64,000 bases of DNA from an uncultured SAR116 cluster alpha proteobacterium. Lineage in GTDB: Bacteria; Pseudomonadota; Alphaproteobacteria; Puniceispirillales; Marisalimonadaceae. Position 1 is the first letter of the stretch; each line of letters opens with the position of its first letter. Positions 11,083 through 27,250 of this stretch are shown piece by piece. The stretch is taken from assembly GCA_902517815.1 (NCBI GenBank), contig CABYED010000004.1:62001-126000 (forward strand). Direction: 5' to 3'. The notes under the pieces are model-generated. The model searched no databases. It was not told the origin of the DNA and worked only from the letters and a program-made list of their open reading frames with translations. Both the position numbers and the translations under genes were made by a program.

Positions 11083-11104
11083 CATCAAATATAAAATTTT
11101 AAAA

Positions 11105-11606: not shown

Positions 11607-11893
11607 ACTAAAAACAACATGATGTTTTTATAATCAAGTAATTTTCAATTATTATATTATTCAACCTGGCGGATGATAAATTAGTTAAAAAGACTTTAAA
11701 TTATCAATTGCAAACAATTTCATAATAAGTATTATTTCGAAAAGTATTACAGAGATTTATCATTTTAAAATTAACTTCTAACACCTATCACAAAAATATA
11801 AATGAGTATATAGCTACTCTATACGATAAAGTTCGTAATAAAACACAAAGTTTATCAGAACCACTTAGTGAAGCAGATCAGTGCATCCAATCA

Positions 11894-13996
11894 ATGCCTG
11901 ATGCAAGTCCAACTAAATGGCATTTAGCTCATACAACTTGGTTTTTTGAAACGTTTATCCTTAAAAAATTTGTTAGAAATTATCAAGAGTTTCATCCTAA
12001 CTATAATTTCTTATTTAATTCTTATTATAATAAAATAGGGGATCGTCATGCTAGGCCTGAAAGAGGTATGATAACCCGTCCTTCATCAGCTGAGGTATAC
12101 GAATATAGAAATCATATTGATAATAAAATGAAAGAATACTTTCAAATGAAACCAAAATCTGATGTTTTACGATTGATAGAACTTGGCATTCATCACGAAC
12201 AACAACATCAAGAACTTTTAATGACAGACATAAAACATGCTTTTTCAAGAAATCCATTGTTTCCTAAATATAGAGAACCTATTGCAGTAAAAGGATTAAG
12301 TGTAAGTAAATCAAATTGGTTAGATCATCCAGGGGGACTTGTCGAAATTGGATATTCTGGAGAAAAGTTTGTTTTTGATGCTGAAGGTCCGAGACATAAA
12401 ATTTGGCTAGAGCCATTTTGTTTAGCAAAAAATCCAGTATCAAATCGTGAATATATAGAGTTTATCGAGGATGGGGGTTATAAGAAGGCAGAGTTTTGGT
12501 TATCTGACGGATGGACTTTTTGCCAAAAGGAAAATTTGGAATCTCCAATGTATTGGTATAAAAATAGTGATGGTACTTGGTCATATTATACAATGGGTGG
12601 TATAATTCCAATAAATTTGAACGCTCCGGTTTGTCATGTTAGTTATTATGAAGCTGATGCATTCGCTCGATGGTCTAATGCCAGGTTGCCTCGAGAATCT
12701 GAGTGGGAAATAATTGCTGAATCATTTGATATTGAGGGCAATTTTGCTGATGCTAATATATTTGCCCCACAACCTTCAACAAAAGATGGAGTTACACAAA
12801 TTTATGGAGATGTGTGGGAATGGACCCAAAGCTCATTTGCTGCTTATCCAGGCTATCAGATTGCGGATGGTGCAGTAGGCGAATATAATGGAAAATTTAT
12901 GTCTGGCCAGATGGTTTTACGGGGTGGTTCTTGCGCCACTTCTTCAGATCACATCAGAGCTTCATACCGCAATTTCTTTCCTCCAAGTGCGCGCTGGCAA
13001 TTTTCAGGAATACGTTTGGCTAAGGACAGATCTGCTACTATTTATAGTCTTCATGCTAATGATAATTGTAATAAAGACAAATTTTTGAATGATGTTATTT
13101 TAGGATTAAGTTCATTACCTAAACACATACCATCAAAATATCTTTATAATAATGAAGGTGCTTGTCTATTCGAAAAAATTTGTAAACTTGACGATTATTA
13201 TCCAACAAGAACAGAAGTAGGTATTCTTAAAAATAATGCGACTGAAATAGCAAAATATTTTGGTTCGAATGTAACGCTTATTGAATACGGTTCTGGTTCT
13301 CTTGAGAAGGTACGAATACTAATAGATAAATTAATTGATCCAGTTTCACTTTGTGCAATTGATATTTCGGAAGAACAATTGCAAAAAGGGGCAAATATTT
13401 TACGTGAGACCTACCCCAAGCTTGAAGTTTTAACAGTTGCTGCTGATTTCACTTCATCATTGAAAATACCAAAATCTAAAAGACAGACTAAGTCAAAAAT
13501 TGCATTTTTCCCAGGTTCTACTATTGGAAATTTTGAGCCTATTAGTGCTAAAACATTTTTACAATCAATTTGCAAAACTGTTGGCATAAACGGAAAATTG
13601 TTAATAGGTGTTGATTTAAAAAAAGATCATGAACGCCTGCTTAGAGCGTATGATGACAATAAAGGTGTTACGGATGCTTTTAATAAAAATCTTCTCTCGA
13701 GAATTAATCAAGAACTAGGTGCTGACTTTAATCAAGGTTTGTTTCGTCATATTGTTCGCTTTAACACTTTCGAAGGTAGAGTAGAAATGCATCTTGAAAG
13801 TTGTGTTGATCAAGTAGTTAATATTGGTAAAGAAAGATTTTTTTTTACAGCCGGTGAAACAATTCATACAGAAAATTCATATAAATATCACATCCATGAA
13901 TTTGTAGATTTGGCTGCCTCTTCTGGTTTTGAGAAAATTTCGACATGGACAGATAAAGAAAACTTATTTGCCGTTATGTTATTTAAAGTTAAATAA
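11894..13996 (+). CDS. egtBD: EgtB-EgtD fusion: ergothioneine sulfoxide synthase plus histidine trimethyltransferase
   Basis: 700 residues from ATG 11894. Residues 1-385 are EgtB: a DinB-type domain with His13, His101 and His105 (HEQQH) as iron ligands, then an FGE-sulfatase domain ending in GIRLAKD. Residues 390-700 are EgtD, the SAM-dependent histidine N-alpha-trimethyltransferase (YYPTRTE, EYGSGS, FFPGSTIGNF, TENSYKY). Together they could turn histidine plus a thiol into the sulfoxide precursor of ergothioneine; the final C-S lyase is not present. In-frame family-like sequence (EYIATLYDKVR...CIQS) continues upstream to about 11729 without any ATG/GTG/TTG, so the first ~38 residues expected for EgtB lack a usable start. 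Confidence 0.9.
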   Translation: MPDASPTKWHLAHTTWFFETFILKKFVRNYQEFHPNYNFLFNSYYNKIGDRHARPERGMITRPSSAEVYEYRNHIDNKMKEYFQMKPKSDVLRLIELGIHHEQQHQELLMTDIKHAFSRNPLFPKYREPIAVKGLSVSKSNWLDHPGGLVEIGYSGEKFVFDAEGPRHKIWLEPFCLAKNPVSNREYIEFIEDGGYKKAEFWLSDGWTFCQKENLESPMYWYKNSDGTWSYYTMGGIIPINLNAPVCHVSYYEADAFARWSNARLPRESEWEIIAESFDIEGNFADANIFAPQPSTKDGVTQIYGDVWEWTQSSFAAYPGYQIADGAVGEYNGKFMSGQMVLRGGSCATSSDHIRASYRNFFPPSARWQFSGIRLAKDRSATIYSLHANDNCNKDKFLNDVILGLSSLPKHIPSKYLYNNEGACLFEKICKLDDYYPTRTEVGILKNNATEIAKYFGSNVTLIEYGSGSLEKVRILIDKLIDPVSLCAIDISEEQLQKGANILRETYPKLEVLTVAADFTSSLKIPKSKRQTKSKIAFFPGSTIGNFEPISAKTFLQSICKTVGINGKLLIGVDLKKDHERLLRAYDDNKGVTDAFNKNLLSRINQELGADFNQGLFRHIVRFNTFEGRVEMHLESCVDQVVNIGKERFFFTAGETIHTENSYKYHIHEFVDLAASSGFEKISTWTDKENLFAVMLFKVK

Positions 13997-14002
13997 TTTG
14001 GA

Positions 14003-14095
14003 GGAGAGAACCTCCTCATTATTTCATTTTAATCATCTGATTTAACTAGATTTTATAGAATAATAATTATTCAGTCTAAAATTTAGTCTACAAAT
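14003..14095 (+). repeat. Island repeat R3 (internal att-like element)
   Basis: GGAGAGAA-CCTCCTC core (14003-14017), one mismatch from R1 in its left half, with arms GTCTAAA (14074-14080) and GTCTACA (14086-14092). It starts just 6 bases after the stop codon of the EgtB-EgtD gene and ends 42 bases before the next gene. Confidence 0.78.
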
Positions 14096-14137
14096 TGTAT
14101 TATTGAATTATAAAATAAACAGATTATAAATATAAAC

Positions 14138-15469
14138 ATGCGAAAATTACTTTGTTGTACATTTTTCCTTTTTGCTTCAAGTGTAATTTTAATTTCTGAA
14201 AACACAAAAGCTGGGAATTGGAATAAAGGTGGCACTGGAAGCACTTTTTTGATTCCTCAAACTAATCCTGGTGGGCCTGCAGTTAGCCATACAAGCAATG
14301 AAGAACTCCCCCAGAATGTTAGACCTAATGATAACACTATCTCACTTTATCTAGACAGAAAAACTGCGCATATCCATTACCGGCGAAGCCAAGGTCGTAC
14401 CTATATAGTTGAGCCAAGTGGAAACGCTTTAGAATTCAAATTTGTAACAAATATTAAAAGTGCGGTTCTAGAACAGCAGCTCTCTAAGGGATATATCCTA
14501 AGCTACCTGTTTTATGAGGATGGAATAGTTAAATACAACGGTCGAGCAAAAGATGGTCGTTTTCGTCAAGACGTAAATAATGAAATGCTTTTTTTTACGC
14601 ACTCAACAGGTAAAAGTATAACTTCCTATATTATTGGTCATGCAATATGTGAAGGGTATATTGACTCCATTCATGAGTTAATTGACTGGCCAATGATGAG
14701 CAAAACTCTCTATCAAGGGCAACCATTACTTGACTTGTTAAATATGAGAGCGGGAGATAAACACACTATAGACGAAAAAAGAAGTCATTATGTGATGGGA
14801 TCAAAAAAGCATCATCGCCACATGGGCTTAAATGAAATTGCACGGCTATTGGAGGGAACTAAAAAAAGAGGTCGTAAACTTTTTTACAATAACTTTCTTG
14901 CTGATGTGTTGGCCAACTATATTGTCTTTAAAAGTGGTGAAAAATATGACTATTTGATGCGCAAAGTTTTCCAAGAAAAAGTAAAAATCGCACATCCAAT
15001 TTATTATGAGAAACACGCTAGTAGTTCAGGTGGTTCTACAAAAGATAAAAACTCACCTGACTATTACGGTCAGCCACAAACTCTTGCATCTTACTCATTC
15101 ATGATGACACGCCTGGATTTTTTAAGGGTGGCAGTAGCAATGATGAAAGACTATCAAAGCGACAGTTGTGAAGGGAATTATCTTAAACAAATCCAATCTA
15201 AGGCTGAAAATTGGTATCGTGGTCGCCACAAAAGTCGTAATGCAAGTTTATGGCTTAACAATTATGCGCAAAAATATGGTGGTCAGTTTTACTTTGACTT
15301 CCTTGGCATGAAGCAACGAAATATTTTTGGAACTGAGGGTTACAATGGTCAAAATATGTTAATCGACATGGATAAATCAAGAATTGTAGTTACTAATAGC
15401 TCGGCAACTGCTTGGGACCAAAGAACATTCATGCTTGAAGTTATTCGCGACGGAAAGTTGCCAAAATAA
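14138..15469 (+). CDS. Secreted serine beta-lactamase-family hydrolase
   Basis: A 443-residue protein with a clear signal peptide (MRKLLCCTFFLFASSVILIS, cleavage near TKA-G). The Ser-x-x-Lys motif of class C/penicillin-binding-type hydrolases appears as STGK within FFTHSTGKSITSYI; the rest of the fold (LLDLLNMRAG, YNNFLADVLANYI) fits the beta-lactamase superfamily, nearest to EstB/6-aminohexanoate hydrolase-like esterases. It probably acts in the periplasm on an ester, amide or peptide. It is alone between repeats R3 and R4, a one-gene cargo segment, and a distant relative lies at 16702. Confidence 0.82.
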   Translation: MRKLLCCTFFLFASSVILISENTKAGNWNKGGTGSTFLIPQTNPGGPAVSHTSNEELPQNVRPNDNTISLYLDRKTAHIHYRRSQGRTYIVEPSGNALEFKFVTNIKSAVLEQQLSKGYILSYLFYEDGIVKYNGRAKDGRFRQDVNNEMLFFTHSTGKSITSYIIGHAICEGYIDSIHELIDWPMMSKTLYQGQPLLDLLNMRAGDKHTIDEKRSHYVMGSKKHHRHMGLNEIARLLEGTKKRGRKLFYNNFLADVLANYIVFKSGEKYDYLMRKVFQEKVKIAHPIYYEKHASSSGGSTKDKNSPDYYGQPQTLASYSFMMTRLDFLRVAVAMMKDYQSDSCEGNYLKQIQSKAENWYRGRHKSRNASLWLNNYAQKYGGQFYFDFLGMKQRNIFGTEGYNGQNMLIDMDKSRIVVTNSSATAWDQRTFMLEVIRDGKLPK

Positions 15470-15510
15470 GAAAATAAGGTAATAAAAAATTAAAATTGTT
15501 ATAAATGCGA

Positions 15511-15602
15511 GAAGACAACCTCCTCGTTATTCAATCTTAATCATCTTATTAAATTAGAATTTATAGATTAATAAGTTTTCAGTCCACAATTTAGTCTACA
15601 AA
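15511..15602 (+). repeat. Island repeat R4 (internal att-like element)
   Basis: GAAGACAA-CCTCCTC core (15511-15525) with arms GTCCACA (15582-15588) and GTCTACA (15594-15600), again 63 and 12 bases apart. Its left half is the most degenerate of the four, suggesting the oldest insertion or a site that no longer needs tRNA identity. Confidence 0.75.
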
Positions 15603-15612
15603 TAAATATTTT

Positions 15613-16666
15613 TTAATTATTAAATTTAATTGTCTTAATTATTTCTTCATCAACTTGTTTCATTACTTTCCGGTTTGTAGTTGTATTACCTTTTCTTCTT
15701 GGGCAGTTTTTACTCAAAAACATAAAAGCTTCATTATCATCAGGACTAAAAATCGAAGTATTTGTAGTAATTATTTTTTTATTTAAAAAATCAAAGTTTA
15801 AACCACAATTATATGTACTAACCATGTTTTGAGGCCATCTATGTTTGTGCCAAGCCAATCTCCAAGGCCCTTCAGGTTTGCCATACCAATCCATATTTTC
15901 AGCAGAACGCATAGAATCCCACATATGACCTATACTTTGAAACTGTGAATCTTTAAAAATCTTAATAGAAGCATTCACACCTCTATTTTTTATTGTTTTA
16001 ATAAATGATTCACACGCTTTTTCATCGTAATTTGTGTCATCTGTGCCAATAAAATGTCTATATATTACTTGTTTGTATTTTTTATTATTTGTTAGCTGAC
16101 ATGCGCCATACAAATTAATAAAACCCTTAAAATCATGACTTGAATTTTTAAGGTTATTAGTAAAATTTTTATCCAAAGATAAAGCAGCTAAAAATCCTCC
16201 TAAAGAAAATCCAATGAACCATGATTGTTTTAGATCAATTTCATTGTAATCACTTAAATAAGATAATGCACCATAAGCATCATGCATTCTTGAACCAGCT
16301 CCAGCTATTTCAAATTTCATAGGCCATTTTTGTTTATGTGGAATATCTCTAGATGCATAAGTCCTAACTCCTACACAGGCGATTCCGTTTTGCGATAACT
16401 TTTCACACATTCGATTATCTCTTCCTCTTTGACCTCCTAACCCAGGAACAAGTATAGCTAATGGGAATTTTGAACTATTTGAGGCCTTTTTTGGAAGATA
16501 CAAAATTCCATGCGAAGTAATAGGTTTAACTTTTTAACCCCATAAATCTTCTCCAAGGTATGAAGAAAATTCAATCCTTTTACCATCTTTGTCCGCGTAA
16601 AGTTTTAAATGAATAAGAACTTATAAGTATAAAAATAAGAGCTAAAATTAAAGACAATTTATGCAT
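15613..16666 (-). pseudogene. Exported alpha/beta hydrolase, degraded at its 5' end
   Basis: The intact 3' part (TTG 16503 to 15613, 296 codons) has a dienelactone-hydrolase-like core: LVPGLGGQRGRDNR, the nucleophile elbow GFSLGG, and QSIGHMWDS near the expected His. Upstream, the frame continues as DGKRIEFSSYLGEDLWG, a TAA at 16534-16536, KVKPITSHGI, then the intact part. Further upstream ATG 16666 begins a signal peptide (HKLSLILALIFILISS) in a different frame. One stop and one frameshift thus separate the export signal from the enzyme. It is probably non-functional as a secreted enzyme. Confidence 0.7.
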
Positions 16667-16701
16667 TGTTTTATAAAGAGAAAGGGAAGCCAAGGTGAAA
16701 C

Positions 16702-17814
16702 CTAGAAATTTCCAAGTTGCATTGTGGCTTCTGGAATTATTTCTTGTATAATTTTTTTTCCTTTATATTTAAAATTTGAAGTGGCTGATAGAAGAGCAAT
16801 CACACTATTATTATGATGGTTTGGGACAGCAAATTGTCCAAACTTTCCAGTCAAAACAATAACTGGCTTACCTGAAATTTGAGAAACCCAAAAATAATAA
16901 CCATATTTTTGATATTTTCTTGTACTAGTTCGTAAAGCATTTTTAACACCATCTAGGAGGTAATTGCCCATACAAGATTTTGATTTAATTTCATTGTTCA
17001 TATAGTTGGCCATGTTTGCCCAATCTCTGGTTTTGAGGAACATTCCAGCCATCCCTAATGACATTTTGTTTTTGTCTTCAAGCCAATATAAAGCACCTTC
17101 AGGTTTGGTTTTTGGAAAAACATTCTCAAAAAATACCTGTGCTACAGATTTTTGTGTTATTTCATTAATTAATATTGAAGTAGCTGTTATATCAAGAGAA
17201 TGGTATCTACTCATCTTTCCTTGTTCAGAAAATTTTGTTTTAATTTTTTGAATTACTTTTACTAAATCATTACTTCCATTATTTTGTCGATTCATCATCA
17301 TGTGATTAAATTTTTTTTCATTATCTCGGTTCTTATTAATACCACTAGACATTCTTAATAAATTTCTAATGGTTATGTCTTTGTAGATACTGTTATTTAA
17401 TGATTGTGAATATTTAGAAGAAGTATCATCTAAAGATTTTATTTCTCCACTACATAACAGATGTCCAACTGTCAGACCAACTGCTGTTTTAGTCATAGAC
17501 ATTCCATGAGAGTAGAAATCAGGATTAGCTCCTAACTTTGTGTTATATCTTTCATAAACAATTTTGCCATCCTTCATTGCTACTGCTGAGAAATTACTTG
17601 GAGCTTTGAAGAATTTATCTAAATTTATTTTTTGACCGAGCTTGGTTTGCTGAGGATTTTTATTTTCAAAAAAAGCAACTGGTGTAGGTCCCTTGCCTTC
17701 TCTAGAGTTTAAGTCTCGTCCCATCATTCTTTTCTTAACAAAACTTTTGTCCAAATCAGCAAGGGCATTAAAATTAAAAATAATTGAAATAAAAGCTATA
17801 ATAAATTTTTTCAT
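16702..17814 (-). CDS. Secreted serine beta-lactamase-family hydrolase (second copy)
   Basis: About 370 residues; start at ATG 17814 (AAGGAA upstream) rather than the TTG one codon earlier. A signal peptide (MKKFIIAFISIIFNFNALA) precedes the mature enzyme. SMTK in YSHGMSMTKTAVG is the Ser-x-x-Lys motif, and a Tyr-containing RYHSLDITATSIL segment is in the position of the class C YxN loop (here YHS). The overall plan matches 14138 but sequence similarity is low. It is paired with the broken alpha/beta hydrolase in the same orientation. The substrate is unknown. Confidence 0.8.
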   Translation of the reverse strand: MKKFIIAFISIIFNFNALADLDKSFVKKRMMGRDLNSREGKGPTPVAFFENKNPQQTKLGQKINLDKFFKAPSNFSAVAMKDGKIVYERYNTKLGANPDFYSHGMSMTKTAVGLTVGHLLCSGEIKSLDDTSSKYSQSLNNSIYKDITIRNLLRMSSGINKNRDNEKKFNHMMMNRQNNGSNDLVKVIQKIKTKFSEQGKMSRYHSLDITATSILINEITQKSVAQVFFENVFPKTKPEGALYWLEDKNKMSLGMAGMFLKTRDWANMANYMNNEIKSKSCMGNYLLDGVKNALRTSTRKYQKYGYYFWVSQISGKPVIVLTGKFGQFAVPNHHNNSVIALLSATSNFKYKGKKIIQEIIPEATMQLGNF

Positions 17815-17940
17815 CAATTAAATTCCTTTAGGTTTGTATTAACATGTTAATCAATATTTCTAATTAAAAAAGTTAAAATTTAATTTTAAGTTTTCCTAAT
17901 TCAACATGTTTAAAAAGTTTTCGGAAATTAAAATTACTTC

Positions 17941-18231
17941 TTAAAACTTTTGCTTCAGAAAATTGATTATATTTGGCGTGATAAGCTCACCATAATGTTC
18001 TAATGTTTCAAGTTCATTAATAGCTTCTAAATATATTGCAAGCTCAATACTAGACTTTCTTGCATGTAATAATTTTAAGCTAAAATCTTTATTAAACTCA
18101 GGATGAGCTTAAAGAGCCAAAACTGAATCACCAATTTAAAAAGATGATATATTGCAAAATGAATTACCAGCTATTAATTCAGCATTCTGAGGTAATTTTA
18201 CAACCTGGCCTTGATGGAAGAAGATACGGTT
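17941..18231 (-). pseudogene. Remnant of a class-I glutamine amidotransferase (PuuD/GMP-synthase-like GATase)
   Basis: The reverse strand between two genes carries a decayed frame: FFHQGQVVKLPQNAELIAGN, SSF, stop, IGDSVLAL, stop, AHPEFNKDFSLKLL, ending in TAA at 17941-17943. HQxQV and AHPEF are the C-terminal signatures (catalytic His and Glu) of class-I GATases. Both internal stops are TAA where the family has Gln (SSFQIG and LQAHPEF), each one C-to-T change from CAA. The N-terminal half with the nucleophile Cys is gone. Confidence 0.75.
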
Positions 18232-18300
18232 TAATTTATTAAAATTACCTAACAAACTGTTTTATTTGTTAGTTTTATAATTAGTTTATAAGAGTAAAAT

Positions 18301-18513
18301 TTATTTTATCGAGTCAATCATTACCAATATGCAAATATAGAAAAAAGCAAACACAAATACTGGTGCTGCATTTGATATTCGTTTATTACTTTTTGGCTCT
18401 GACTTTTCCCAGTCTGCTGGCATAACATCTCTATCCCATGCCTCACGTCTTGTATCTTTTTTACGTTGATCAACGTGAATATTTCTTGGGTCAACTTTGT
18501 AATCTGCATTCAT
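18301..18513 (-). CDS. Small single-TM protein, unknown
   Basis: 70 residues: a hydrophilic, strongly charged first half (VDQRKKDTRREAWDRDVMP) and one C-terminal membrane segment (VFVFAFFYICILVMI). It probably sits in the inner membrane with its N-terminus in the cytoplasm. It is 55 bases downstream of the PsiE-like gene and probably co-transcribed with it. No family is recognised; the alternative frame at 18321-18509 has no such features. Confidence 0.55.
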   Translation of the reverse strand: MNADYKVDPRNIHVDQRKKDTRREAWDRDVMPADWEKSEPKSNKRISNAAPVFVFAFFYICILVMIDSIK

Positions 18514-18568
18514 TTTCTAAAATCTTCTCGCATTTCAAATTCTAGGATAACATAATAAAGCTAATTAA

Positions 18569-18994
18569 TTATTTTTTTTCTAACTTATTTGACAAATCTT
18601 CATCTTCAGATTGATAGATATAAGTATTTAATGGTTTAAATCTTATGGCTAAACAAGCCAGTGCAATTACAAGTATTGCTCCTGCTTCATAAAGAAGTAT
18701 GATTGGGTCCATGCCTTTTCCTTGGAGGATTATTAATCTAGCTATTGCTGTCATAGCAATAAACAATGGCAATGTAATAGGTATTTTATTACTTATATAA
18801 AATATACCTATCATTCCTAGAACTTCAGTATATATAAATAACAATAATAAGTCAGCTAATTGTACTTTACCGTTAACATATATAGAGTAGATTTCCTGCA
18901 AAACTGCAATTACAGTTAAAACCGCTATAATACCTAGTAAAACCTTTTCTATAGTTTTTATAATAAGAGCAGGCTTAAATTTATGGTCTTTCAT
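18569..18994 (-). CDS. psiE: PsiE-family membrane protein (phosphate-starvation-inducible family)
   Basis: 141 residues with four hydrophobic segments: IIKTIEKVLLGIIAVLTVIA, LADLLLLFIYTEVLGMIGIFYI, ITLPLFIAMTAIARLII and ILLYEAGAILVIALACLAIRF. The E-V-L-G-M and AMTAIARLII blocks are characteristic of the PsiE family (PF06146). In E. coli psiE responds to phosphate starvation and cAMP-CRP, but its molecular role is not known. It has the normal family length. In this island it may travel as cargo with the small membrane protein downstream. Confidence 0.85.
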   Translation of the reverse strand: MKDHKFKPALIIKTIEKVLLGIIAVLTVIAVLQEIYSIYVNGKVQLADLLLLFIYTEVLGMIGIFYISNKIPITLPLFIAMTAIARLIILQGKGMDPIILLYEAGAILVIALACLAIRFKPLNTYIYQSEDEDLSNKLEKK

Positions 18995-19177
18995 GGCTAT
19001 AACTCTAGATTAACTATAGTGAATAACGAATAATTAAAATATTGATATTATACTACTTTTTACAGTAATTTGAAATTATAAAATTTTTCATAGTGAAACA
19101 TTACCATAGAGTTTGGAGATATATAAAAAAAAAGATAGTGCATTGAATTCATAGTAGAAAAGTATTATATATATCCA

Positions 19178-19235
19178 AGGCATTTAATTACCAACTTGTA
19201 CGCCTTGGCATCCAGCCTAAAGTACTAAAGCGGAG
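19178..19235 (+). ncRNA. Structured leader, copy A (predicted cis-regulatory RNA)
   Basis: One of three copies (also 19511, 20762). Core 19198-19225 reads GUAC, 5 bases, GGC, AUCCA, GCC, UAAA, GUAC. GUAC self-pairs, CUU before it can pair with AAG after it, and GGC/GCC makes an inner hairpin. It ends at the GGAGG ribosome site, with 16 bases between core and ATG. The inner stem covaries between copies (GGC/GCC here, GUC/GAC in copy B), which supports a real RNA fold. Confidence 0.65.
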
Positions 19236-19241
19236 GCAAAA

Positions 19242-19487
19242 ATGACTTCAAATATATTTTCACAAAAAGACCAAGACTTTGCAGATGCAATGGCTACTAA
19301 GCTTCGTTTGAATAGAGAAAAACTTAAACAAACTTTGACCACAGATGAAAAAATTAACCAATTTACTCCTAAGCAGAAAGAAGAGATTGGTGAATTTAGA
19401 TTATCAATTATTCGTGAAGGTCTAGAAGAGTTTCCAGATTTAGACCTAAAAGACGCACTTCAAAAGTTAGAAGAATTTGGAGGCTAG
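19242..19487 (+). CDS. Small protein behind leader A, unknown
   Basis: An 81-residue, soluble, all-helical-looking protein rich in K, E and L (KDQDFADAMATKLRLNREKL, TPKQKEEIGEFRL, DLKDALQKLEEFGG). ATG 19242 follows GCGGAGGCAAAA, where the SD is the 3' end of leader A. No domain is recognised. Its position at the head of a series of small genes sharing leaders with 19575 and 20828 suggests coordinated expression with them and perhaps with the nuclease-helicase at 21394. Confidence 0.65.
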   Translation: MTSNIFSQKDQDFADAMATKLRLNREKLKQTLTTDEKINQFTPKQKEEIGEFRLSIIREGLEEFPDLDLKDALQKLEEFGG

Positions 19488-19510
19488 GAAGACTTTATAG
19501 TCAAACTAAA

Positions 19511-19568
19511 GGGTATTTATAAACCAACTTGTACACCCTGTCACAAAGACAAAAGTACTAAAAAGGAG
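19511..19568 (+). ncRNA. Structured leader, copy B
   Basis: Core 19531-19558: GUAC, ACCCU, GUC, ACAAA, GAC, AAAA, GUAC, with every segment the same length as in copies A and C. The GUC/GAC stem is a compensatory change relative to GGC/GCC. AAAAAGGAG follows, then ATG at 19575, 16 bases after the core as in copy A. Confidence 0.65.
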
Positions 19569-19574
19569 AAAATA

Positions 19575-19816
19575 ATGTCTAAAGATAAATCTATAAAATA
19601 TCTAGATAAGAATGACCCAATTTATAAAGAGGGTTTTAGAGTATCATCTCATAATAAGTCCTTAGAAAACTATATTAAAGCAAGAGAAAATGCTGAAAAT
19701 AAAAGAACCTTTTTTTAGAAAAAATTGCAGATAAGGATACTACTAGAGATGAAATGATAGAGAACATTAAAAATGCCCTAATTGCAAATGGGTGGACTTA
19801 CAAGGAGGATAAATAA
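19575..19816 (+). pseudogene. Small unknown gene behind leader B, frameshifted at a T7 run
   Basis: ATG 19575 behind AAAAAGGAG starts a frame (MSKDKSIKYLDKNDPIYKEG...) that hits TAG right after NKRTFF in a run of seven T near 19710. With one extra T it continues LEKIADKDTTRDEMIENIKN...GWTYKEDK to TAA 19814-19816, a plausible 80-residue protein whose stop overlaps the next start. The conserved leader and the coupled downstream gene argue that the full frame is or was functional. Options are homopolymer error, slippage-corrected expression, or a young lesion. Confidence 0.6.
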
Positions 19817-20274
19817 TGTCATATTATGAATATGAATTTCCTCAACAAAAGATTTTTGAGGTTAAAGATTTACCTTCAATAGATAATTCTAATAAGCTTT
19901 ATATTGATAGTGAAGAACCACTTCAAAAAAACAGACCTAAAATAAAACCGCAAAAGGTAGTCTTTTTATTTTCAGTTGAATGGATGTGGTCACCTGCACA
20001 TAACAGAGTAGATAATTATTTTATTAATATAAAACCGTCCAGGTATTATCTTTGGAATAGTTTTTTTGACCGTCATAGTTTTTCAGATTATTGGGATTTT
20101 ATTGGTTACACTGATAATAAAAAAGGTGACCTAAAAGATATTTCTATAAATCTTATTAAGAAGTATTGGGAAGTTGAGGCTAAAGATTCATATCTTGATC
20201 ATTTTCATTTAATAAGCCTAGAGGGTCTATTAAAAGTAAGTGACATCAAATCACTTGGGAGATCTGTATGGTAA
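19816..20274 (+). CDS. Hypothetical protein, translationally coupled
   Basis: 152 residues, starting at the ATG that overlaps the previous stop (TAATG), with AAGGAGGA 7 bases upstream. The protein is aromatic-rich: VVFLFSVEWMWSPAHNRVDN, then RYYLWNSFFDRHSFSDYWDF and KKYWEVEAKDSYLDHFHL. The mixture of W/Y/H-rich strands and a C-terminal helix is compatible with a small enzyme or binding protein, but no family was identified. No signal or TM segment is present. Confidence 0.65.
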   Translation: MSYYEYEFPQQKIFEVKDLPSIDNSNKLYIDSEEPLQKNRPKIKPQKVVFLFSVEWMWSPAHNRVDNYFINIKPSRYYLWNSFFDRHSFSDYWDFIGYTDNKKGDLKDISINLIKKYWEVEAKDSYLDHFHLISLEGLLKVSDIKSLGRSVW

Positions 20275-20316
20275 GAGTATGCAATTACAATTAATTTTAA
20301 ATATTAAGGAGTAGAA

Positions 20317-20700
20317 ATGGAATTTTTTGATTTTATTAAGGATTTCGTAAAAGAACATGAACAAACTATAGTTATAATTATTATGATAATATTAGCTGTA
20401 TATCTTAATAATAACTATAAAAATAAATTTCAAAAAATGTTAGATGAAAAAGAGAGTTGTAGACTTAGATTTGAAGATTCCCAGAAAGAATTTTTTGAAG
20501 AATGGAAAAATGAATATGAAACTGAAACATTTAAAAAAATTTCAGATGAAAGGTTATTATCTCACAAAGAAAAGTTGAAAGAAATTCAAGACGATTTTAA
20601 TTCTAATACCCTTAACGATATAGGTATAACTCTAATATTTATTTGTTTGTGTGTAGTTATTTCTTTCGTTTATTACTCACCAATATTTTTTGGCAAATAA
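20317..20700 (+). CDS. Membrane protein with two TM segments and a coiled coil
   Basis: 127 residues. One TM at about 17-31 (TIVIIIMIILAVYLN), a long charged, probably coiled-coil middle (FQKMLDEKESCRLRFEDSQ... to KLKEIQDDF), and a second TM at about 103-122 (IGITLIFICLCVVISFVYY). The AAGGAG ribosome site is 6 bases before ATG. The middle would lie on one side of the inner membrane, in a hairpin topology. No family is recognised. It sits between leader-controlled small genes in the same direction. Confidence 0.65.
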   Translation: MEFFDFIKDFVKEHEQTIVIIIMIILAVYLNNNYKNKFQKMLDEKESCRLRFEDSQKEFFEEWKNEYETETFKKISDERLLSHKEKLKEIQDDFNSNTLNDIGITLIFICLCVVISFVYYSPIFFGK

Positions 20701-20761
20701 AATGGAAGAGGGCTCATGTTAAAAATTATCCAATTTCAAATATAATAATTAATAATTTAAC

Positions 20762-20820
20762 AGGCACTTAATCAACCAACTTGTACGCCTTGGCATCCTG
20801 TCTAAAGTACTAAAGCGGAG
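20762..20820 (+). ncRNA. Structured leader, copy C
   Basis: Nearly identical to copy A over 58 bases. Core 20783-20810: GUAC, GCCUU, GGC, AUCCU, GUC, UAAA, GUAC, where the inner stem keeps pairing through a G-U wobble. GCGGAG follows as in copy A, but no ATG comes after it; the next in-phase codon is ATA at 20828. Confidence 0.65.
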
Positions 20821-20827
20821 ATATCCA

Positions 20828-21076
20828 ATAAAAAAAGAAGAGCATTTAAAATACTGCAAAAAAGTAGCAGAGGTTCTTGGTTATGATAGATTACATAATC
20901 TTGATAAACTACAAAGACAATCCTTAAATAATCAATTAAACGACTTAATTGAAGAACATAATAATATTGTTGAAACTGTTACAGATGACGAAATAATAGG
21001 TCGTTATGAACTAGTAACTAAGCATATATATCCTAATGAATTTATTGAAATGCGTGATATGATAAACAGGAAATAA
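20828..21076 (+). CDS. Small unknown gene behind leader C, apparently with ATA start
   Basis: An open frame of 83 codons (KKEEHLKYCKKVAEVLGY..., then QRQSLNNQLNDLIEEHNN and YPNEFIEMRDMINRK) ends at TAA 21074-21076. No ATG, GTG or TTG opens it, but ATA at 20828 lies 7 bases after GGAG, where copies A and B have ATG. Either it initiates at ATA, or the start has been lost by a G-to-A change and the gene is inactive. The composition (K/E/N/L helices) resembles the protein behind leader A. Confidence 0.5.
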   Translation: MKKEEHLKYCKKVAEVLGYDRLHNLDKLQRQSLNNQLNDLIEEHNNIVETVTDDEIIGRYELVTKHIYPNEFIEMRDMINRK

Positions 21077-21094
21077 TTAATTAGAGATATTTAA

Positions 21095-21376
21095 ATGAAT
21101 GATAGCAAAGCACCTGAATGGCTTTTAAAAGCATCTGATAGAATAATTGAACATATGAATGATGACCATTCTAATTCAATTGTATCAACATTAAATGCAC
21201 AACATGACATTAAAGATAAAAATGCAAAAATGGAGAAGTTGGAAGTTAATGGGTACTTTGCTTTATCAAATCAAAAATTATATTTTTTAGAATTTGAACA
21301 AGTTTGTAACTCTGCTGAAGAATATAAAGTAGAACTTATTAAACATGCAAAGAAATATAGAGGTTATGAGTTATAG
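21095..21376 (+). CDS. DUF2470/HugZ-like domain protein
   Basis: A 93-residue single-domain protein. RIIEHMNDDHSNSIVSTLNA is the hallmark of the DUF2470/HugZ C-terminal domain (IxHMNxDH), and the rest (LEVNGYFALSNQKLYFLEF, then YKVELIKHAKKY) fits the fold. In HugZ-type heme oxygenases this region contributes to heme handling, and isolated copies are of unknown role. It follows the ATA-start ORF by 18 bases and is 17 bases before the large helicase gene, so it is probably in the same transcript. Confidence 0.78.
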   Translation: MNDSKAPEWLLKASDRIIEHMNDDHSNSIVSTLNAQHDIKDKNAKMEKLEVNGYFALSNQKLYFLEFEQVCNSAEEYKVELIKHAKKYRGYEL

Positions 21377-21393
21377 ATACTTAGAAATTGATA

Positions 21394-24300
21394 ATGAGTA
21401 ATTTTGAAACACTATTAACTGAGATAAGAAAAGATACTTCAGGAAAGTCATTTGAAGTTTTCTGCAAATGGTTTTTAGAAAATGATCCTTACTGGAAAAC
21501 TCAAGTTGAAAAAGTTTGGCTTTGGGATAATTGGCCTGAACGATGGGATATAGATAAAGGTATAGATCTAGTCTTTAAGCATAAAAACGGACAAAATTGG
21601 GCTATCCAAAGTAAATGCTATTCTGAAGACTATTATATCAAGAAAGAAGACATAGATAGTTTCCTTTCAGAATCAAATCGTAAACAAATCCAACAAAGAC
21701 TACTTATTGGGACAACTGACAGAATTGGTAAAAATGCCAGAGAAACCATGAGTGGTCAGGAAAAGCCAGTAAGACCTCTTTTATTAAGCGATCTTAAAGA
21801 TTCAGGACTTGATTATCCATCTTCTCTTAAAAAATTAGGTTCTAAAGGTAAAAAAAAGAAAATTAATAAGGACAGACCATATCAACAACAAGCTATAAAA
21901 AAGGTTGTAGAAGGCTTTAAGGAGCATGATAGAGGTAAACTTATCATGGCTTGTGGAACAGGAAAAACTCTTGTTACACTTTGGATTAAAGAAAAGCTAA
22001 AACCACAAACAACGCTTGTTCTTTTACCCTCACTTAATCTTCTATCTCAAACTCTTTTTGAATGGACTACTCATAGTAAATATCCTTTTGAAGTTCTTTG
22101 TATATGCTCTGATACAACAGTTGGAAAACAAGAAAGAAACGAAGACATGAGTGTAACAGATGCTTATTTTGATGTTACAAGTGATGTATCTACAATTTCA
22201 AAGTTTTTAAAGTTAGATAAGCCTAAAGTTATTTTCTGTACTTATCAATCATCTGACTTAGTAAGTAAGGCTCAAAAAAAAGAGGTAATAGATTTTGTTA
22301 TCTGTGATGAAGCACATAGGTGTACTGGATTAGCCAAAAGTACTTTCACGAAAGTATTAGATGATAAAAATATTAAAGCTAAAAAAAGATTATTTACCAC
22401 GGCAACGCCACGAATATTTTCAGCATCAGTTAAAACAGTTGCTGCCAAAAAAGATCAAGAAATCTATGGTATGGACGATGAAAATATCTATGGACCAGAT
22501 TTTTTTGAATATACTTTTGGTCAAGCTATTGATGATGAATGGTTAACTGATTATCAGGTTGTTATTGTTGGTGTTGATGAACCAACCGTTAAAGCTTCCA
22601 TAGATGAAAGAGAGCTTATCGCTCTAGACAACGATAAATATGAAGATGCTGAGACTTTAGCTTCAAAAATAAGTGTGGCTAAAGCAATTAAAGATTATGA
22701 CATTACAAGGATGATATCTTTTCACAATAGAGTAAAAGAAGCTCAAAATTTTTCAAAAGATTTTGCTACTATTTTAAAATTATTGAATAAAAAAGATAGA
22801 CCAAAAGGGCATATTTGGACTGATTTTATATCAGGTCAAATGACTACAAAACAGAGAAAAATTAAACTTCAACAATTAAAAAACTTATCCTGTTCTGATA
22901 GAGGCATAGTATCTAATGCAAAATGTTTGTCTGAGGGCGTTGATGTACCCACGCTTGATGGTGTTGCCTTTGTAGACCCTAAAGGAAGTCAAATAGATAT
23001 AATTCAATCAGTTGGACGTGCCCTTAGAAAAAGTGAAGAGAAGAATATTGGAACAATTATACTTCCTGTTTTTTTAAATAAAGATGCAGATGATATTAAA
23101 ACTATAGAAAATAGTAATTTTAAACCAGTATGGGATGTTTTAAAAGCTCTTCGCTCACATGATGAAAGACTTGGAGATGAACTTGATAATTTAAGAGTAA
23201 GAATTGGTAAAAGAAAAAAAATAAAAAAAAACTTACCTAAAAAACTTAATTTAGATTTTCCAAAATCCTTACATCAAAATTTTTCAAATTCATTAAAAAT
23301 AAAATTAGTTACATACACAACTGAAAATTGGATGGACTGGTATGGTCTGTTAAATGCATATGTAGAAAAGTTCAAAGTTCTTCCTAATTCTAAAACTTCA
23401 TTTGAAAATAAAAACTTAGGAAATTGGTGCGGAACTCAGAGAATACGTTATAAGAATAATAATTTAGATATAAAAAAAATTAATTTTTTAAATAAGATTC
23501 CTACATGGAAATGGTCATTAGAGCCAGAATGGATAAATTTTGCAGATGCAAGAAATTTTGCAAGAAAGTTGAATTTAAAAGATAATAAAGGTTGGAGAGA
23601 TTATTTGAAGACAGATAATCTTCCAAATGATATACCCTCTTCACCAGACCATGTGTATGCCAATTTAGGTTGGATTTCATGGGGTGATTGGCTAGGCACT
23701 AGTGCGCTTGGCAATACAGTAAGAAATTTCAAACCTTTTATAGAAGCAAGAAACTTTGTAAGAAGTTTAAATTTAAAAAGTACCACTGAATGGAGACAAT
23801 ATTGTATTTCAGAAACATTTCCTCAGGATTTACCTACAAATCCAGCAAGAGTTTACAAAAATGACGGGTATATTTCTTTTGGTGATTGGTTAGGAACTGG
23901 AAGTGTTGCAACTCAAAAGATTAATTATAGATCTTTTAATGAGGCTAGACAATTTGTAAGAAAATTAAATTTAAAAAATGTTGAAGAATGGAAAAATTAT
24001 AGTCGTACAAAAACCTTTCCAAAGGATTTGCCTGCTAAACCATACAGAACTTATAAAGATGATGGCTGGGAATCTTTTGGGGATTGGTTAGGTACAGGAA
24101 GAATTGCCAATTTTAATAAAGTATTTAGACCCTTTGGGGAAGCAAGAACGTTTGTCAGAAATCTAAAATTACAGAATGCTAAGGAATGGAGAGAATATGC
24201 TCTTTCAAAATCTTTTCCAAAAGATTTACCAAATAGTCCTGAACAAACCTACAAAAATAAAGGCTGGGTTTCTTATGGGGATTGGTTGGGAACAGGTGCA

Positions 24301-25083
24301 CGTGGCACTCAAGGAAGAAAGTTTAAATCTTTTATAGAAGCAAGAATATATGCAAGAAATTTAAATTTAAATAATATTGCAGAATGGAAATCTCTTAGTA
24401 AGCAGAATAAATTGCCAATTGATATTCCATCAAACCCTAATCGCACATATAAAAATTATGGATGGATTTCTTATTCTGATTGGCTAGGCATAAAAAATCT
24501 CGCAACATTTAAAACTTTTGAAGAAGCTCGCAAAAATATTAGAAAATTAAATTTTACAAGTAGAAAACAGTGGAATTATTTTAAGAATGATAGAAATTTT
24601 CCTAATAATATTCCAAAAACACCAGACGGCGTTTACAAGGATAAGGGTTGGATTTCATGGGGTGATTGGTTGGGCACAGGAAGTGTCGCCAGCTCTAAAA
24701 AAGTATTTAGATCCTTCAAGGAAGCAAGAATATACGTAAGAGATTTAAATTTAAATAATATCGCAGAATGGAAATCTCTTATTAAACAGGATAAATTGCC
24801 AATTGATATTCCATCAAATCCTAACCGCACATATAAAAATGATGGTTGGATTTCTTATAGTGATTGGCTTGGAACAAGAAGAATAGCTCCCATTAATAGG
24901 GTATTTAGACCTTTCAAGAAAGCAAGACAATTTGTAAGAAAATTAAATCTAAAAAGTAGAAAAGAGTGGATAGAATTTACAAAACATGAAGCTTTCCCCA
25001 ATGATCTCCCAGTTAATCCACATAAAACTTATGAAGGAAAAGGTTGGATTTCTTATAATGACTGGTTGGGAAAAGATAAATAA
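21394..25083 (+). CDS. Mrr-like nuclease-DEAH helicase with eight phage-integrase repeat units
   Basis: 1229 residues from ATG 21394 (a TTG two codons earlier is less likely). Residues 1-120: restriction-endonuclease-like Mrr domain with GIDLV and WAIQSKCY as its D-(Q)xK centre. Residues about 155-600: SF2 helicase with Walker A ACGTGKT, Walker B CDEAH, TATP and motif VI QSVGRALR. Then a helicase-associated domain (WGxLNAYVEKF-like; W-C-G-T-Q near 675). Residues about 715-1229 hold eight ~64-residue units ending GWxSxGDWLGTG, like the phage-integrase repeat unit (PF14882). It probably binds, unwinds and cuts DNA, perhaps in defence or element maintenance. No methylase gene is nearby. Confidence 0.85.
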   Translation: MSNFETLLTEIRKDTSGKSFEVFCKWFLENDPYWKTQVEKVWLWDNWPERWDIDKGIDLVFKHKNGQNWAIQSKCYSEDYYIKKEDIDSFLSESNRKQIQQRLLIGTTDRIGKNARETMSGQEKPVRPLLLSDLKDSGLDYPSSLKKLGSKGKKKKINKDRPYQQQAIKKVVEGFKEHDRGKLIMACGTGKTLVTLWIKEKLKPQTTLVLLPSLNLLSQTLFEWTTHSKYPFEVLCICSDTTVGKQERNEDMSVTDAYFDVTSDVSTISKFLKLDKPKVIFCTYQSSDLVSKAQKKEVIDFVICDEAHRCTGLAKSTFTKVLDDKNIKAKKRLFTTATPRIFSASVKTVAAKKDQEIYGMDDENIYGPDFFEYTFGQAIDDEWLTDYQVVIVGVDEPTVKASIDERELIALDNDKYEDAETLASKISVAKAIKDYDITRMISFHNRVKEAQNFSKDFATILKLLNKKDRPKGHIWTDFISGQMTTKQRKIKLQQLKNLSCSDRGIVSNAKCLSEGVDVPTLDGVAFVDPKGSQIDIIQSVGRALRKSEEKNIGTIILPVFLNKDADDIKTIENSNFKPVWDVLKALRSHDERLGDELDNLRVRIGKRKKIKKNLPKKLNLDFPKSLHQNFSNSLKIKLVTYTTENWMDWYGLLNAYVEKFKVLPNSKTSFENKNLGNWCGTQRIRYKNNNLDIKKINFLNKIPTWKWSLEPEWINFADARNFARKLNLKDNKGWRDYLKTDNLPNDIPSSPDHVYANLGWISWGDWLGTSALGNTVRNFKPFIEARNFVRSLNLKSTTEWRQYCISETFPQDLPTNPARVYKNDGYISFGDWLGTGSVATQKINYRSFNEARQFVRKLNLKNVEEWKNYSRTKTFPKDLPAKPYRTYKDDGWESFGDWLGTGRIANFNKVFRPFGEARTFVRNLKLQNAKEWREYALSKSFPKDLPNSPEQTYKNKGWVSYGDWLGTGARGTQGRKFKSFIEARIYARNLNLNNIAEWKSLSKQNKLPIDIPSNPNRTYKNYGWISYSDWLGIKNLATFKTFEEARKNIRKLNFTSRKQWNYFKNDRNFPNNIPKTPDGVYKDKGWISWGDWLGTGSVASSKKVFRSFKEARIYVRDLNLNNIAEWKSLIKQDKLPIDIPSNPNRTYKNDGWISYSDWLGTRRIAPINRVFRPFKKARQFVRKLNLKSRKEWIEFTKHEAFPNDLPVNPHKTYEGKGWISYNDWLGKDK
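23538..25080 (+). repeat. Eight tandem ~64-codon repeats inside the helicase gene
   Basis: Units start with a F-x-x-AR-x-x-x-R-x-L-x-L pattern, then EW, P-x-D-(L/I)-P-x-x-P, Y-K-x-x-GW and S-x-x-DWLG. Units 5 and 7 share almost identical stretches (NLNNIAEWKSL, LPIDIPSNPNRTYKN), pointing to recent duplication within the array; unit 6 is the shortest and most divergent at its centre. Confidence 0.88.
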
Positions 25084-25110
25084 ATTTTTTTTGTTTTACA
25101 TATAAAATTT

Positions 25111-25509
25111 TTAACAATCATTATATTTAAATTCATAATCAAAATTCTTATTATCTATAAAATTCATATAATTTCTTGAGGACTTTTGACTGATATCGTC
25201 CTTACCTTTAATCAAGCTTAAATATCTTAAAGCCACATTTGTTTTCTTAAATAAATCCAATTCTTGGTTATTTAATGTTTCAAGAATTATTTTTTGAGAA
25301 GTGATTAAAAGATTTTTGTGAGTGTCAATTATTTCTTCTAAAATAATTTCAGTTGCATCCATAACTGCAGTTTTAAATTCAGGATCTTGCCTCCAGCGAG
25401 ATAAAGTCTCAGTTCTTATATTAAGTTGTTTTGAAATAGCTGATGCTTTCACACCAGAGGCAATCAAATAAACTGCAATAAGTTGATTTTCATTGAGTTT
25501 TAATGACAT
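25111..25509 (-). CDS. HTH protein, terminase-small-subunit/phBC6A51-like
   Basis: 132 residues with an N-terminal helix-turn-helix (NENQLIAVYLIASGVKASAISKQLNI then TETLSRWRQDPEFK), the layout seen in phage terminase small subunits and in the phBC6A51-type HTH family. The C-terminal half is helical and lacks a nuclease. No terminase large subunit is present, so it is more likely a DNA-binding regulator or a satellite-like packaging relic. Its start overlaps the AlpA-like gene by 20 bases, so the two are co-transcribed. Confidence 0.7.
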   Translation of the reverse strand: MSLKLNENQLIAVYLIASGVKASAISKQLNIRTETLSRWRQDPEFKTAVMDATEIILEEIIDTHKNLLITSQKIILETLNNQELDLFKKTNVALRYLSLIKGKDDISQKSSRNYMNFIDNKNFDYEFKYNDC

Positions 25510-25729
25510 TAAGAACTCTTTGTGGTCTTTTTCCTAGAAATCCTCTAACTTCTTTTGTCTTATCATACCACTCATTAATTTCATCAACATCCCATACCGT
25601 TTTATTGGGCCCTAATTGAAAAGGTTTAGGAAAATCAGGTTTTTCTTTAACCCATCTTGAAACAGTAGATTCACTAATGTAAAGTCTTCTTGCAACTTCT
25701 TTTTTTGGAATACATTTTGGTTTAGTCAT
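25490..25729 (-). CDS. AlpA-family regulator/excisionase
   Basis: 79 residues with a winged-HTH of the AlpA/MerR-like excisionase type: IPKKEVARRLYISESTVSRWVKEK, FPKPFQLGPNKTVWDVDEINEWY. In P4-like and CP4-57-like elements such proteins activate or direct the integrase toward excision. Its position one gene from the integrase, in the same direction (117-base gap), fits that role. Confidence 0.85.
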   Translation of the reverse strand: MTKPKCIPKKEVARRLYISESTVSRWVKEKPDFPKPFQLGPNKTVWDVDEINEWYDKTKEVRGFLGKRPQRVLNVIKTQ

Positions 25730-25846
25730 AATAAACTCCGCAATAAAAATTAATCCATTGCCAAGTCGTCTGACTTTTATATGATTTCACTACCTCTGGT
25801 AAAGCATTAGAATAATATCAAAGATAAAAATAAACCTCAATAAAAT

Positions 25847-27025
25847 TTATTTTTTTATTTTTGATGTTACAAAACCTGCCCAATCATCCATTAATAATTT
25901 TCGTTTTTCAAATAAATCAGATCTAAAGTAAGCTGATTGTGATCTTGATGGTAATTGATGGGCTAATGCAAACTCAACCATGTTTTGATCATAATTGCCT
26001 GTTTCAGCTGCCCATACTCTAAACGTAGATCTAAATCCATGGACAGTAAATTTCATATGACGATAGTTATCTCTAACAAATTTCCCCATAGCATTATTAG
26101 ATAAATGTTGATCTGGGTTGTTACCTGTAAACACATACTTATAGTTATGTAGATTATGAGGTATGCCTAACAATTTTATTGCCTCATAGGATAGGGGAAC
26201 CTTATGCTCTTTTTTAGCTTTCATTCTAGCCTCTGGGATTGTCCATATATTTTGTTCAAAATCTAATTCATCACTTTGCAAGAGTGTAACTTCTGATGTT
26301 CTTGCAACAGTTAAAATAAGAAATCTTAAAGCTCTAGTTGTTGTAGTCTCAATTTTGGATAATTCAGTATAAAAATCTGGAAGCTTCTTATAATGAAGGG
26401 AAGGGAAGTGTTTTTGTGATTTATAGGGTCTTTTAAATATATAAGAGATACTTGTCTTCCAATCAGCAACATTAGAGCCAACATAATATTCTAAGGAAAT
26501 ACCATATCCCATAACACGAGAGACACGTTGTTGAACACGAGTGGCAGTTTCTGTTTTTTCATCCCAGATGGGTTTTAAAACCCGTCTTATATGTTCTGTT
26601 GTAATTTTATGAAAGGGGACTTCATCTAAAACTGGAAATGCATAGTCCTTCAATGTGTTATACCATTGCTGGGCATGTTTTGGATTTTTCCAGTTGCTTT
26701 TAACATCATCAATATAATCTTTTGCAACCGTACTAAAACGTCTTTTAGCTTTATCTTGTTCTTGTTTTTTTAAAATGTGTTTTTCTTCAATAGGATCAAT
26801 GCCATTTGTTTTAAGCGTACGTTTTTCTAATGCAAGGTTACGAGCATCTACAATTGATAGCTCAGGGTATGATCCAATAGCCATTTCTTTTGCTTTGCCA
26901 TCAAAGGTATAGCGATAGGTCCACTTGCCGTAATTTCGTGTTTTAAGGGTTAAATTAAGCCCTAAACCGTCAGAAAATTTTTTATTTAGGGGAAGTGATT
27001 TAATTTTAAAGTTATTGAGTCGCAT
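25847..27025 (-). CDS. int: P4-type tyrosine recombinase (integrase)
   Basis: 392 residues from the ATG at 27025 (GGAG 7 bases upstream; an earlier ATG at 27034 abuts the SD). The N-terminal DUF4102 arm-binding domain (FSDGLGLNLTLKTRNYGKW, IGSYPELSIVDAR) is followed by a core-binding domain and the catalytic domain: Arg in TVARTSEVTLL, His-x-x-Arg in VHGFRSTFR (about H329/R332), His in FALAHQL, and Tyr in QSAYFR (about Y366). All catalytic residues are present. The gene lies next to tRNA-Ser, and a GTCTACA box overlaps its leader at 27039, suggesting autoregulation by arm binding. Confidence 0.95.
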   Translation of the reverse strand: MRLNNFKIKSLPLNKKFSDGLGLNLTLKTRNYGKWTYRYTFDGKAKEMAIGSYPELSIVDARNLALEKRTLKTNGIDPIEEKHILKKQEQDKAKRRFSTVAKDYIDDVKSNWKNPKHAQQWYNTLKDYAFPVLDEVPFHKITTEHIRRVLKPIWDEKTETATRVQQRVSRVMGYGISLEYYVGSNVADWKTSISYIFKRPYKSQKHFPSLHYKKLPDFYTELSKIETTTTRALRFLILTVARTSEVTLLQSDELDFEQNIWTIPEARMKAKKEHKVPLSYEAIKLLGIPHNLHNYKYVFTGNNPDQHLSNNAMGKFVRDNYRHMKFTVHGFRSTFRVWAAETGNYDQNMVEFALAHQLPSRSQSAYFRSDLFEKRKLLMDDWAGFVTSKIKK

Positions 27026-27038
27026 TATATACATCTCC

Positions 27039-27048
27039 GTCTACAAAA
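27039..27048 (+). promoter_or_regulatory. Single integrase arm-like box beside int
   Basis: GTCTACAAAA has the same sequence as the arm boxes of R1-R4 and lies immediately upstream of the integrase ribosome site, 111 bases from attR. It would be the right-end arm site. Confidence 0.45.
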
Positions 27049-27150
27049 ATGGTTGAAACAAGATGCTTTTTAATAAAATGCGGTGAATGGCCTTTGTAAA
27101 CATAAATCAATGAAATCAATGACTTATGACATGTGATGACCTGCTATAGC

Positions 27151-27169
27151 TATCTTAATGGCGGAGGGA
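27151..27169 (+). repeat. attR: 19-bp direct repeat at the tRNA-Ser 3' end
   Basis: Identical to 8355-8373. Bases 27159-27169 are the last 11 bases of the tRNA on the minus strand; the repeat therefore preserves the mature tRNA end after integration. Confidence 0.92.
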
Positions 27170-27250
27170 GGGGGATTCGAACCCCCGAAAGGGATTACTC
27201 CCTTTAACGATTTAGCAAACCGGCGCCTTCAGCCACTCAGCCACCCCTCC
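27159..27250 (-). tRNA. tRNA-Ser(GCU)
   Basis: Read on the minus strand: acceptor GGAGGGG pairs with TCCCTCC (one G-U), discriminator G73, CCA encoded at 27159-27161. The anticodon loop TTGCTAA gives anticodon GCU (27214-27216). A long variable arm (AAAGGGAGTAATCCCTTT) marks tRNA-Ser, and the T-arm is GGGGG-TTCGAAT-CCCCC. It is the integration target of the island. Confidence 0.96.

What the first reader, a model, noticed from the sequence alone, without database searches (positions are those of the whole stretch)
19178..20820. Three-copy structured leader with a covarying hairpin
Leaders at 19178, 19511 and 20762 share a 28-base core with identical segment lengths (GUAC-5-stem3-loop5-stem3-4-GUAC). 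The inner stem is GGC/GCC in one copy, GUC/GAC in another and GGC/GUC (wobble) in the third, so pairing is kept while sequence changes. The core ends 16-17 bases before the start codon and its outer strand borders the SD. This suggests a new cis-regulatory RNA that controls several small island genes together.
Basis: partly seen in the sequence, partly recalled or inferred. Interest (0 to 1): 0.85.

Follow-up and report, generated by a model that had tools for sequence, protein, structure and literature searches.

The report
SAM-V-type riboswitches on small island genes
Three look-alike RNA leaders in a mobile island of a marine SAR116 bacterium are diverged copies of a known sensor of the metabolite S-adenosylmethionine, and across marine bacteria and some phages this sensor mostly sits in front of tiny genes of unknown function rather than the methionine genes it is known for.

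Summary
All three 28-base cores are present with the stated segment lengths, and the stems covary in 63 relatives. The RNA is not a new class: all three copies are best matched by Rfam SAM_V (40.0, 31.4 and 28.4 bits; cut-off 41). The bases that contact SAM are kept, except U8, which is C in copy 3. What is unusual is the regulon. About 80 of 95 elements found in the SAR116 order lead small proteins with no Pfam, NCBIfam or PHROG match; 13-14 lead metY or homocysteine methyltransferase genes. In this genome only these three copies exist. Two of the small-gene families occur almost only behind the element. Elements usually carry their own sigma-70-like promoter ending at P1. The window's copies lie in an 18.8-kb island at tRNA-Ser, shown by flanking repeats, an integrase and two congeners with an empty site. 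Six phage lineages carry the same module. Most likely the genes are translated when SAM is low. SAM binding and protein functions are untested.

The parts
19175..19238 (+). Copy 1 of the SAM-V-type element: P1 19177-19181/19202-19206, P2 19196-19201/19222-19228, P3 19207-19209/19215-19217, SD 19230-19236
   Evidence: Rfam SAM_V 31.4 bits; model R1 83 bits, though R1 was built with this copy; pair counts
19143..19171 (+). Likely sigma-70-type promoter of copy 1: TTGAAT, 17 bases, TATATA
   Evidence: 8 of 12 matches at the position conserved in relatives
19242..19487 (+). Gene C, 81 aa, function unknown
   Evidence: family in 12 of 136 genomes of the order, 13 of 14 loci behind the element; purifying selection
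19508..19571 (+). Copy 2 of the element (P2 19529-19534/19555-19561); P1 GGGT/ACCC, P3 GTC/GAC
   Evidence: Rfam SAM_V 40.0 bits
19575..19718 (+). Gene D, truncated to 47 aa here by one missing A against intact homologues of about 80 aa
19816..20274 (+). orf152, second gene behind copy 2; in other genomes it has its own element
   Evidence: 12 of 12 testable loci lie in element-led units; AF2 pLDDT 78, no clear fold relative
20759..20823 (+). Copy 3 of the element; P3 GGC/GUC, third-strand U8 replaced by C
   Evidence: Rfam SAM_V 28.4 bits
20828..21076 (+). Gene E, frame open but ATA where homologues have ATG
8355..27169 (.). Integrative island bounded by the 19-bp direct repeat TATCTTAATGGCGGAGGGA at 8355-8373 and 27151-27169
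   Evidence: Repeat; empty site in two congeners, L327 and L336
25847..27034 (-). Tyrosine integrase of the island
   Evidence: Pfam Phage_integrase 5.6e-13, Phage_int_M 8e-26
27159..27250 (-). tRNA-Ser(GCT), the attachment gene

Best explanation
The three leaders are diverged SAM-V-type riboswitches that shut off translation. Each RNA starts at or just before P1 and folds as an H-type pseudoknot (P1, P2 with a U-rich third strand, P3). When SAM is plentiful it binds in the P2 triplex and stabilises a short helix in which CC of the loop pairs with GG of the Shine-Dalgarno, so the small gene is off. When SAM falls, the SD is freed and the gene is translated. In SAR116 and other marine bacteria this promoter-sensor-SD module has come to control families of small orphan proteins, many on integrative islands and some on phages, forming a low-SAM regulon. 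Shown here: the structure by covariation, the similarity to SAM_V, the conserved promoter-like sequence, the gene partners and the island. Inferred: SAM as ligand, direction of control, SD masking in the cell, and any benefit to cell or island.
For: SAM_V is the best Rfam family for all three leaders. Covariation in P1, P2, P3 and the SD helix. U47, A48, A49, A50, U9, U10, U19 and U20, the pocket of the SAM-V crystal structure (PMC6061858), are kept in the copies found without a fixed pattern. The same element leads metY and homocysteine methyltransferase genes in sister genera, and one genome has both a metY element and small-gene elements. Promoter peaks ending at P1. Families C and orf152 are almost always behind the element. 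In 'Ca. Pelagibacter ubique' SAM-V targets rise under sulfur limitation (PMC5069961).
Against: All three copies score below the Rfam cut-off. Position 18 is C instead of A, and U8 is C in copy 3. In the window's genus no element leads a methionine gene, so SAM as ligand rests on sister genera. Copy 2 has a poor -35 box. Two of the three lead genes look damaged in this genome. No expression or binding data.
Confidence: 0.78

Rival explanations
1. Same fold, but the ligand has shifted: a SAM-V-derived sensor of a related compound (for instance SAH, methylthioadenosine or another adenosyl compound) that runs a different regulon.
For: C18 can pair with G51 beside the amino-acid end of the pocket; gene D/F relatives have G and copy 3 has C at U8; most targets are not methionine genes.
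Against: The C18 form also leads metY and homocysteine methyltransferase genes; the adenine- and sulfonium-contacting bases are kept.
Confidence: 0.12
2. A protein-binding or otherwise new leader that only resembles SAM-V.
For: Rfam scores are below the cut-off and the targets are not sulfur genes in this genus.
Against: Full-length alignment to SAM_V with all helices and nearly all pocket bases; intermediate copies above the cut-off; methionine genes behind the same element.
Confidence: 0.05
3. The leaders are decayed copies without a function now, left by island traffic.
For: Gene E has lost its ATG and gene D has a one-base deletion in this genome; presence is patchy among congeners.
Against: All stems and nearly all pocket bases are intact in all three copies; the downstream families are under purifying selection across genomes; single-base lesions in a draft genome may be sequencing errors.
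Confidence: 0.05

Closest known systems
SAM-V riboswitch (RF01826; metY, mmuM and bhmT of 'Ca. Pelagibacter ubique')
   Same: H-type pseudoknot P1/P2/P3, U-rich third strand, UAAA pocket strand, SD at the 3' edge, a position just before the start codon
   Different: C at position 18, longer loop before P2, GC-rich SD region, scores below the cut-off, own promoter, several copies per genome, small orphan targets on islands and phages
SAM-II riboswitch (RF00521) and SAM-II long loops (RF01726)
   Same: Same pseudoknot core and SAM site as SAM-V by published structures (PMC6061858)
   Different: Neither was reported at the leaders; own-genome searches gave only chance-level matches elsewhere; P3 is absent in SAM-II
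Phage morons (autonomous promoter-gene cassettes; from my own knowledge)
   Same: A small gene with a promoter-like sequence beside phage structural genes (L279, L281, L282)
   Different: Here the cassette also carries a metabolite sensor; no terminator was found in the window array

Membership tests
SAM-V riboswitch (RF01826) | H-type pseudoknot with P1, P2 and P3 | tested here: met
   92.7% of cells paired and covarying in 63 relatives; full-length alignment of all three leaders
SAM-V riboswitch (RF01826) | Pocket bases U47, A48, A49, A50 with U9, U10, U19 and U20 | tested here: met
   Present in all three leaders and in copies found by Rfam without a fixed pattern. U8 is C in copy 3 and position 18 is C; C18 is shared by copies that lead methionine genes, so it is not treated as defining
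SAM-V riboswitch (RF01826) | Rfam gathering score of 41 bits (database criterion, not a structural one) | tested here: not met
   40.0, 31.4 and 28.4 bits; eight related copies in congeners and order relatives reach 42-50 bits. Hence filed as a SAM-V-type variant, not as a certified member
SAM-V riboswitch (RF01826) | Loop strand complementary to the Shine-Dalgarno (P2a) | tested here: met
   CC:GG kept; outer pair CG 44, UG 11, UA 5 of 63
SAM-V riboswitch (RF01826) | Binds SAM and rejects SAH | not testable with these tools
   Needs in-line probing or calorimetry
SAM-V riboswitch (RF01826) | Controls methionine genes | tested here: inconclusive
   Not in this genome; 13-14 of 95 elements in the order lead metY or homocysteine methyltransferase genes
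SAM-II (RF00521) and SAM-II long loops (RF01726) | Match to the covariance model at the leaders | tested here: not met
   Not reported at the leaders at E up to 10; genome hits elsewhere at chance level

The most novel reading that the evidence does not exclude
A portable promoter-riboswitch module lets mobile islands and phages sense SAM. Islands use it to switch on small effector proteins when SAM collapses, as when phage SAM lyases or starvation leave DNA methylation short, for instance to restrain restriction or block a phage. In this form it would be a metabolite-gated class of mobile-element genes.
Probability: 0.15. Interest if true: 0.88.

Novelty: new variant of a known kind. Interest (0 to 1): 0.6.

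Why it matters
SAM-V is described as a switch for methionine genes. Here about 85% of the elements recovered in a marine bacterial order lead small proteins with no family match, on islands and also on phages. If right, SAM level would govern a mobile, uncharacterised small-protein regulon in ocean bacteria. It also gives a ready handle (growth at low sulfur or methionine) to find out when those proteins act.

Tried and rejected
The default Rfam scan found only the tRNA; the laxer scan gave SAM_V. SAM-II families in the genome: chance level. Defence-island link: integrases 6 of 140 neighbours against 0 of 140 in control regions, C5 methylases 2 against 0, but MotB-type ZorB models also hit the control, so a general defence link is not shown. 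Fold of orf152: no Foldseek hit with E <= 0.001 and VIA-align Z at most 5.3, rows led by class D beta-lactamases and WGR domains, taken as uninformative. The model of gene C is poor (pLDDT 69, pTM 0.35) and was not searched. No DNA match in the phage or plasmid record collections; no PDB sequence relatives. A phylum-wide sample gave no hit besides this genome, a useful specificity control. The local consensus promoter scan was at chance level, so the promoter claim rests on position-specific conservation. The original SAM-V binding paper (Poiata 2009) was not held.

Full report
Observation. The three cores are in the sequence with identical segment lengths, 16 bases before ATG in copies 1 and 2; copy 3 has ATA where a close homologue has ATG. 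ACCAACTTGTAC occurs exactly only at these three places in the window.

What the RNA is. At the default cut-off Rfam sees nothing here. With a permissive threshold all three leaders are the top hits of the region, all to SAM_V (RF01826), at 40.0, 31.4 and 28.4 bits against a cut-off of 41. The alignment shows that GUAC/GUAC is the core of P2 and the hairpin is P3. The U-rich third strand follows P1. CC of the loop faces GG of the Shine-Dalgarno.

Structure test. A pattern scan of 84,980 species genomes gave 115 stretches, in marine Proteobacteria apart from a few likely chance matches. Sixty-three non-redundant elements were aligned and the pseudoknot counted: 92.7% of cells paired, 84.4% in shuffles, 30-52% when slid; 95 double-change cells against 30. 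Most P2 positions were fixed by the scan pattern and carry little weight. The R/Y pair inside P2 was free to mismatch and is GC 38, AU 22, GU 3, never mismatched. P3 was free and is 94.6% paired. The SD helix is kept, with CG, UG or UA at its outer pair.

Ligand. In the SAM-V crystal structure U47 and A50 hold SAM, and U20:A48.U9 surrounds the sulfonium (PMC6061858). These bases are present in all three copies and in the copies found by Rfam without a fixed pattern. Differences are C at position 18 (A in metY), which can pair with G51 in most copies, and C at U8 in copy 3. The mapping of our columns to the published numbering is mine. The C18 form also leads metY and homocysteine methyltransferase genes in sister genera. 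One complete 2.75-Mb genome, G042, has a metY element plus two small-gene elements. So SAM remains the likeliest ligand; this is inference from gene context and sequence.

Targets. Among 95 distinct elements recovered in the order, 13-14 lead metY or homocysteine methyltransferase genes and about 80 lead small ORFs in six main families. Family representatives have no match above the curated cut-offs in Pfam or NCBIfam and none in PHROGs. The ORFs show a third-position excess of changes and mostly synonymous single changes, so they behave as real genes. Family C occurs at 14 loci in 136 genomes; 13 have the element just before the start codon. orf152 occurs at 13 loci, and all 12 that can be judged lie in element-led units. 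In this genome only the three window copies match SAM_V beyond chance, and no SAM-II family exceeds chance; the assembly is 89% complete. The window's genus has elements in about half of its genomes, one to five copies each. Elsewhere the element is rare: 18 of 385 genomes in the class sample, only this genome among 398 in the phylum sample.

Promoter. Aligned on P1, 132 elements show two upstream peaks, TTGa at -36 and TAtnnT at -14/-13. In 53 non-redundant upstream sequences from 19 gene clusters the mean is 8.0 of 12 consensus matches against 6.9 +/- 0.14 in shuffles. Transcription should therefore begin at or just before P1. Copies 1 and 3 fit moderately (8 of 12), copy 2 poorly (6 of 12); copy 2 may be read from copy 1, 333 bases upstream. 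No terminator was found in the array.

Island. A 19-bp direct repeat lies at 8355-8373 and 27151-27169, the latter at the 3' end of tRNA-Ser; the integrase is at 25847-27034. Two congeners carry the empty site, window 8373 joined to 27148, and most others lose similarity at this same junction, so it is an integration hotspot. In other genomes the elements also lie near integrases, C5 DNA methylases with nucleases, or Zorya- and Dnd-like genes (those gene names are my reading of the sequences except where searches support them). In a controlled tally only the integrase excess is notable (6 of 140 against 0 of 140).

Phages. Nine IMG/VR contigs, six distinct lineages by my reading, carry the element before a small ORF, at least one beside a capsid gene. 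The small ORFs differ between lineages.

Mechanism. By analogy with SAM-V (PMC6061858; targets rise under sulfur limitation in PMC5069961), high SAM folds the pseudoknot and covers the SD, and low SAM frees it. What the small proteins then do is unknown. The defence idea is kept only as the novel case.

Known or new. Searches of the open-access library found no report of SAM-V before small island or phage genes. The library lacks most subscription papers, including the founding SAM-V paper, so this is weak evidence of novelty.

Noticed in passing
window 19696-19718 and 20828-20830: Two of the three lead genes carry single-base lesions here: gene D lacks one A in an A run and stops at 47 aa, gene E has ATA for ATG. 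A D homologue in G024 (L048) is cut at nearly the same place.
   Followed up: partly
window 21388-25083: 1231-aa protein with Mrr nuclease, ResIII helicase, HA domain and C-terminal repeats (Pfam INT_rpt), just downstream of the array.
   Followed up: partly
window 11894-13996: One 700-aa ORF joins a sulfatase-modifying-factor-like domain and a histidine-specific SAM-dependent methyltransferase, the EgtB and EgtD type of ergothioneine synthesis, as island cargo.
   Followed up: partly
tRNA-Ser(GCT) at window 27159-27250 and the same site in congeners (L318-L337): Hotspot: similarity ends at this junction in most congeners; several other genomes (G001, G009, G017, G019, G067) have a SAM-V-type element on the same contig as this site.
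   Followed up: partly
downstream ORFs of cluster 0 (for example L014, L031, L011): Mosaic small proteins: the same N-terminal stretch is joined to different C-terminal stretches (and the reverse), as if the leader and first codons recombine as a unit.
   Followed up: no
L005, L006, L008, L009: A subgroup of elements before 52-54-aa proteins has G at third-strand position U8 and A at position 18; a candidate for ligand testing.
   Followed up: no
L279, L280, L281, L282, L165, L166: Phage contigs with the element before unrelated small ORFs; L166 has two copies, and L279 has an SU10-type major capsid gene nearby.
   Followed up: partly
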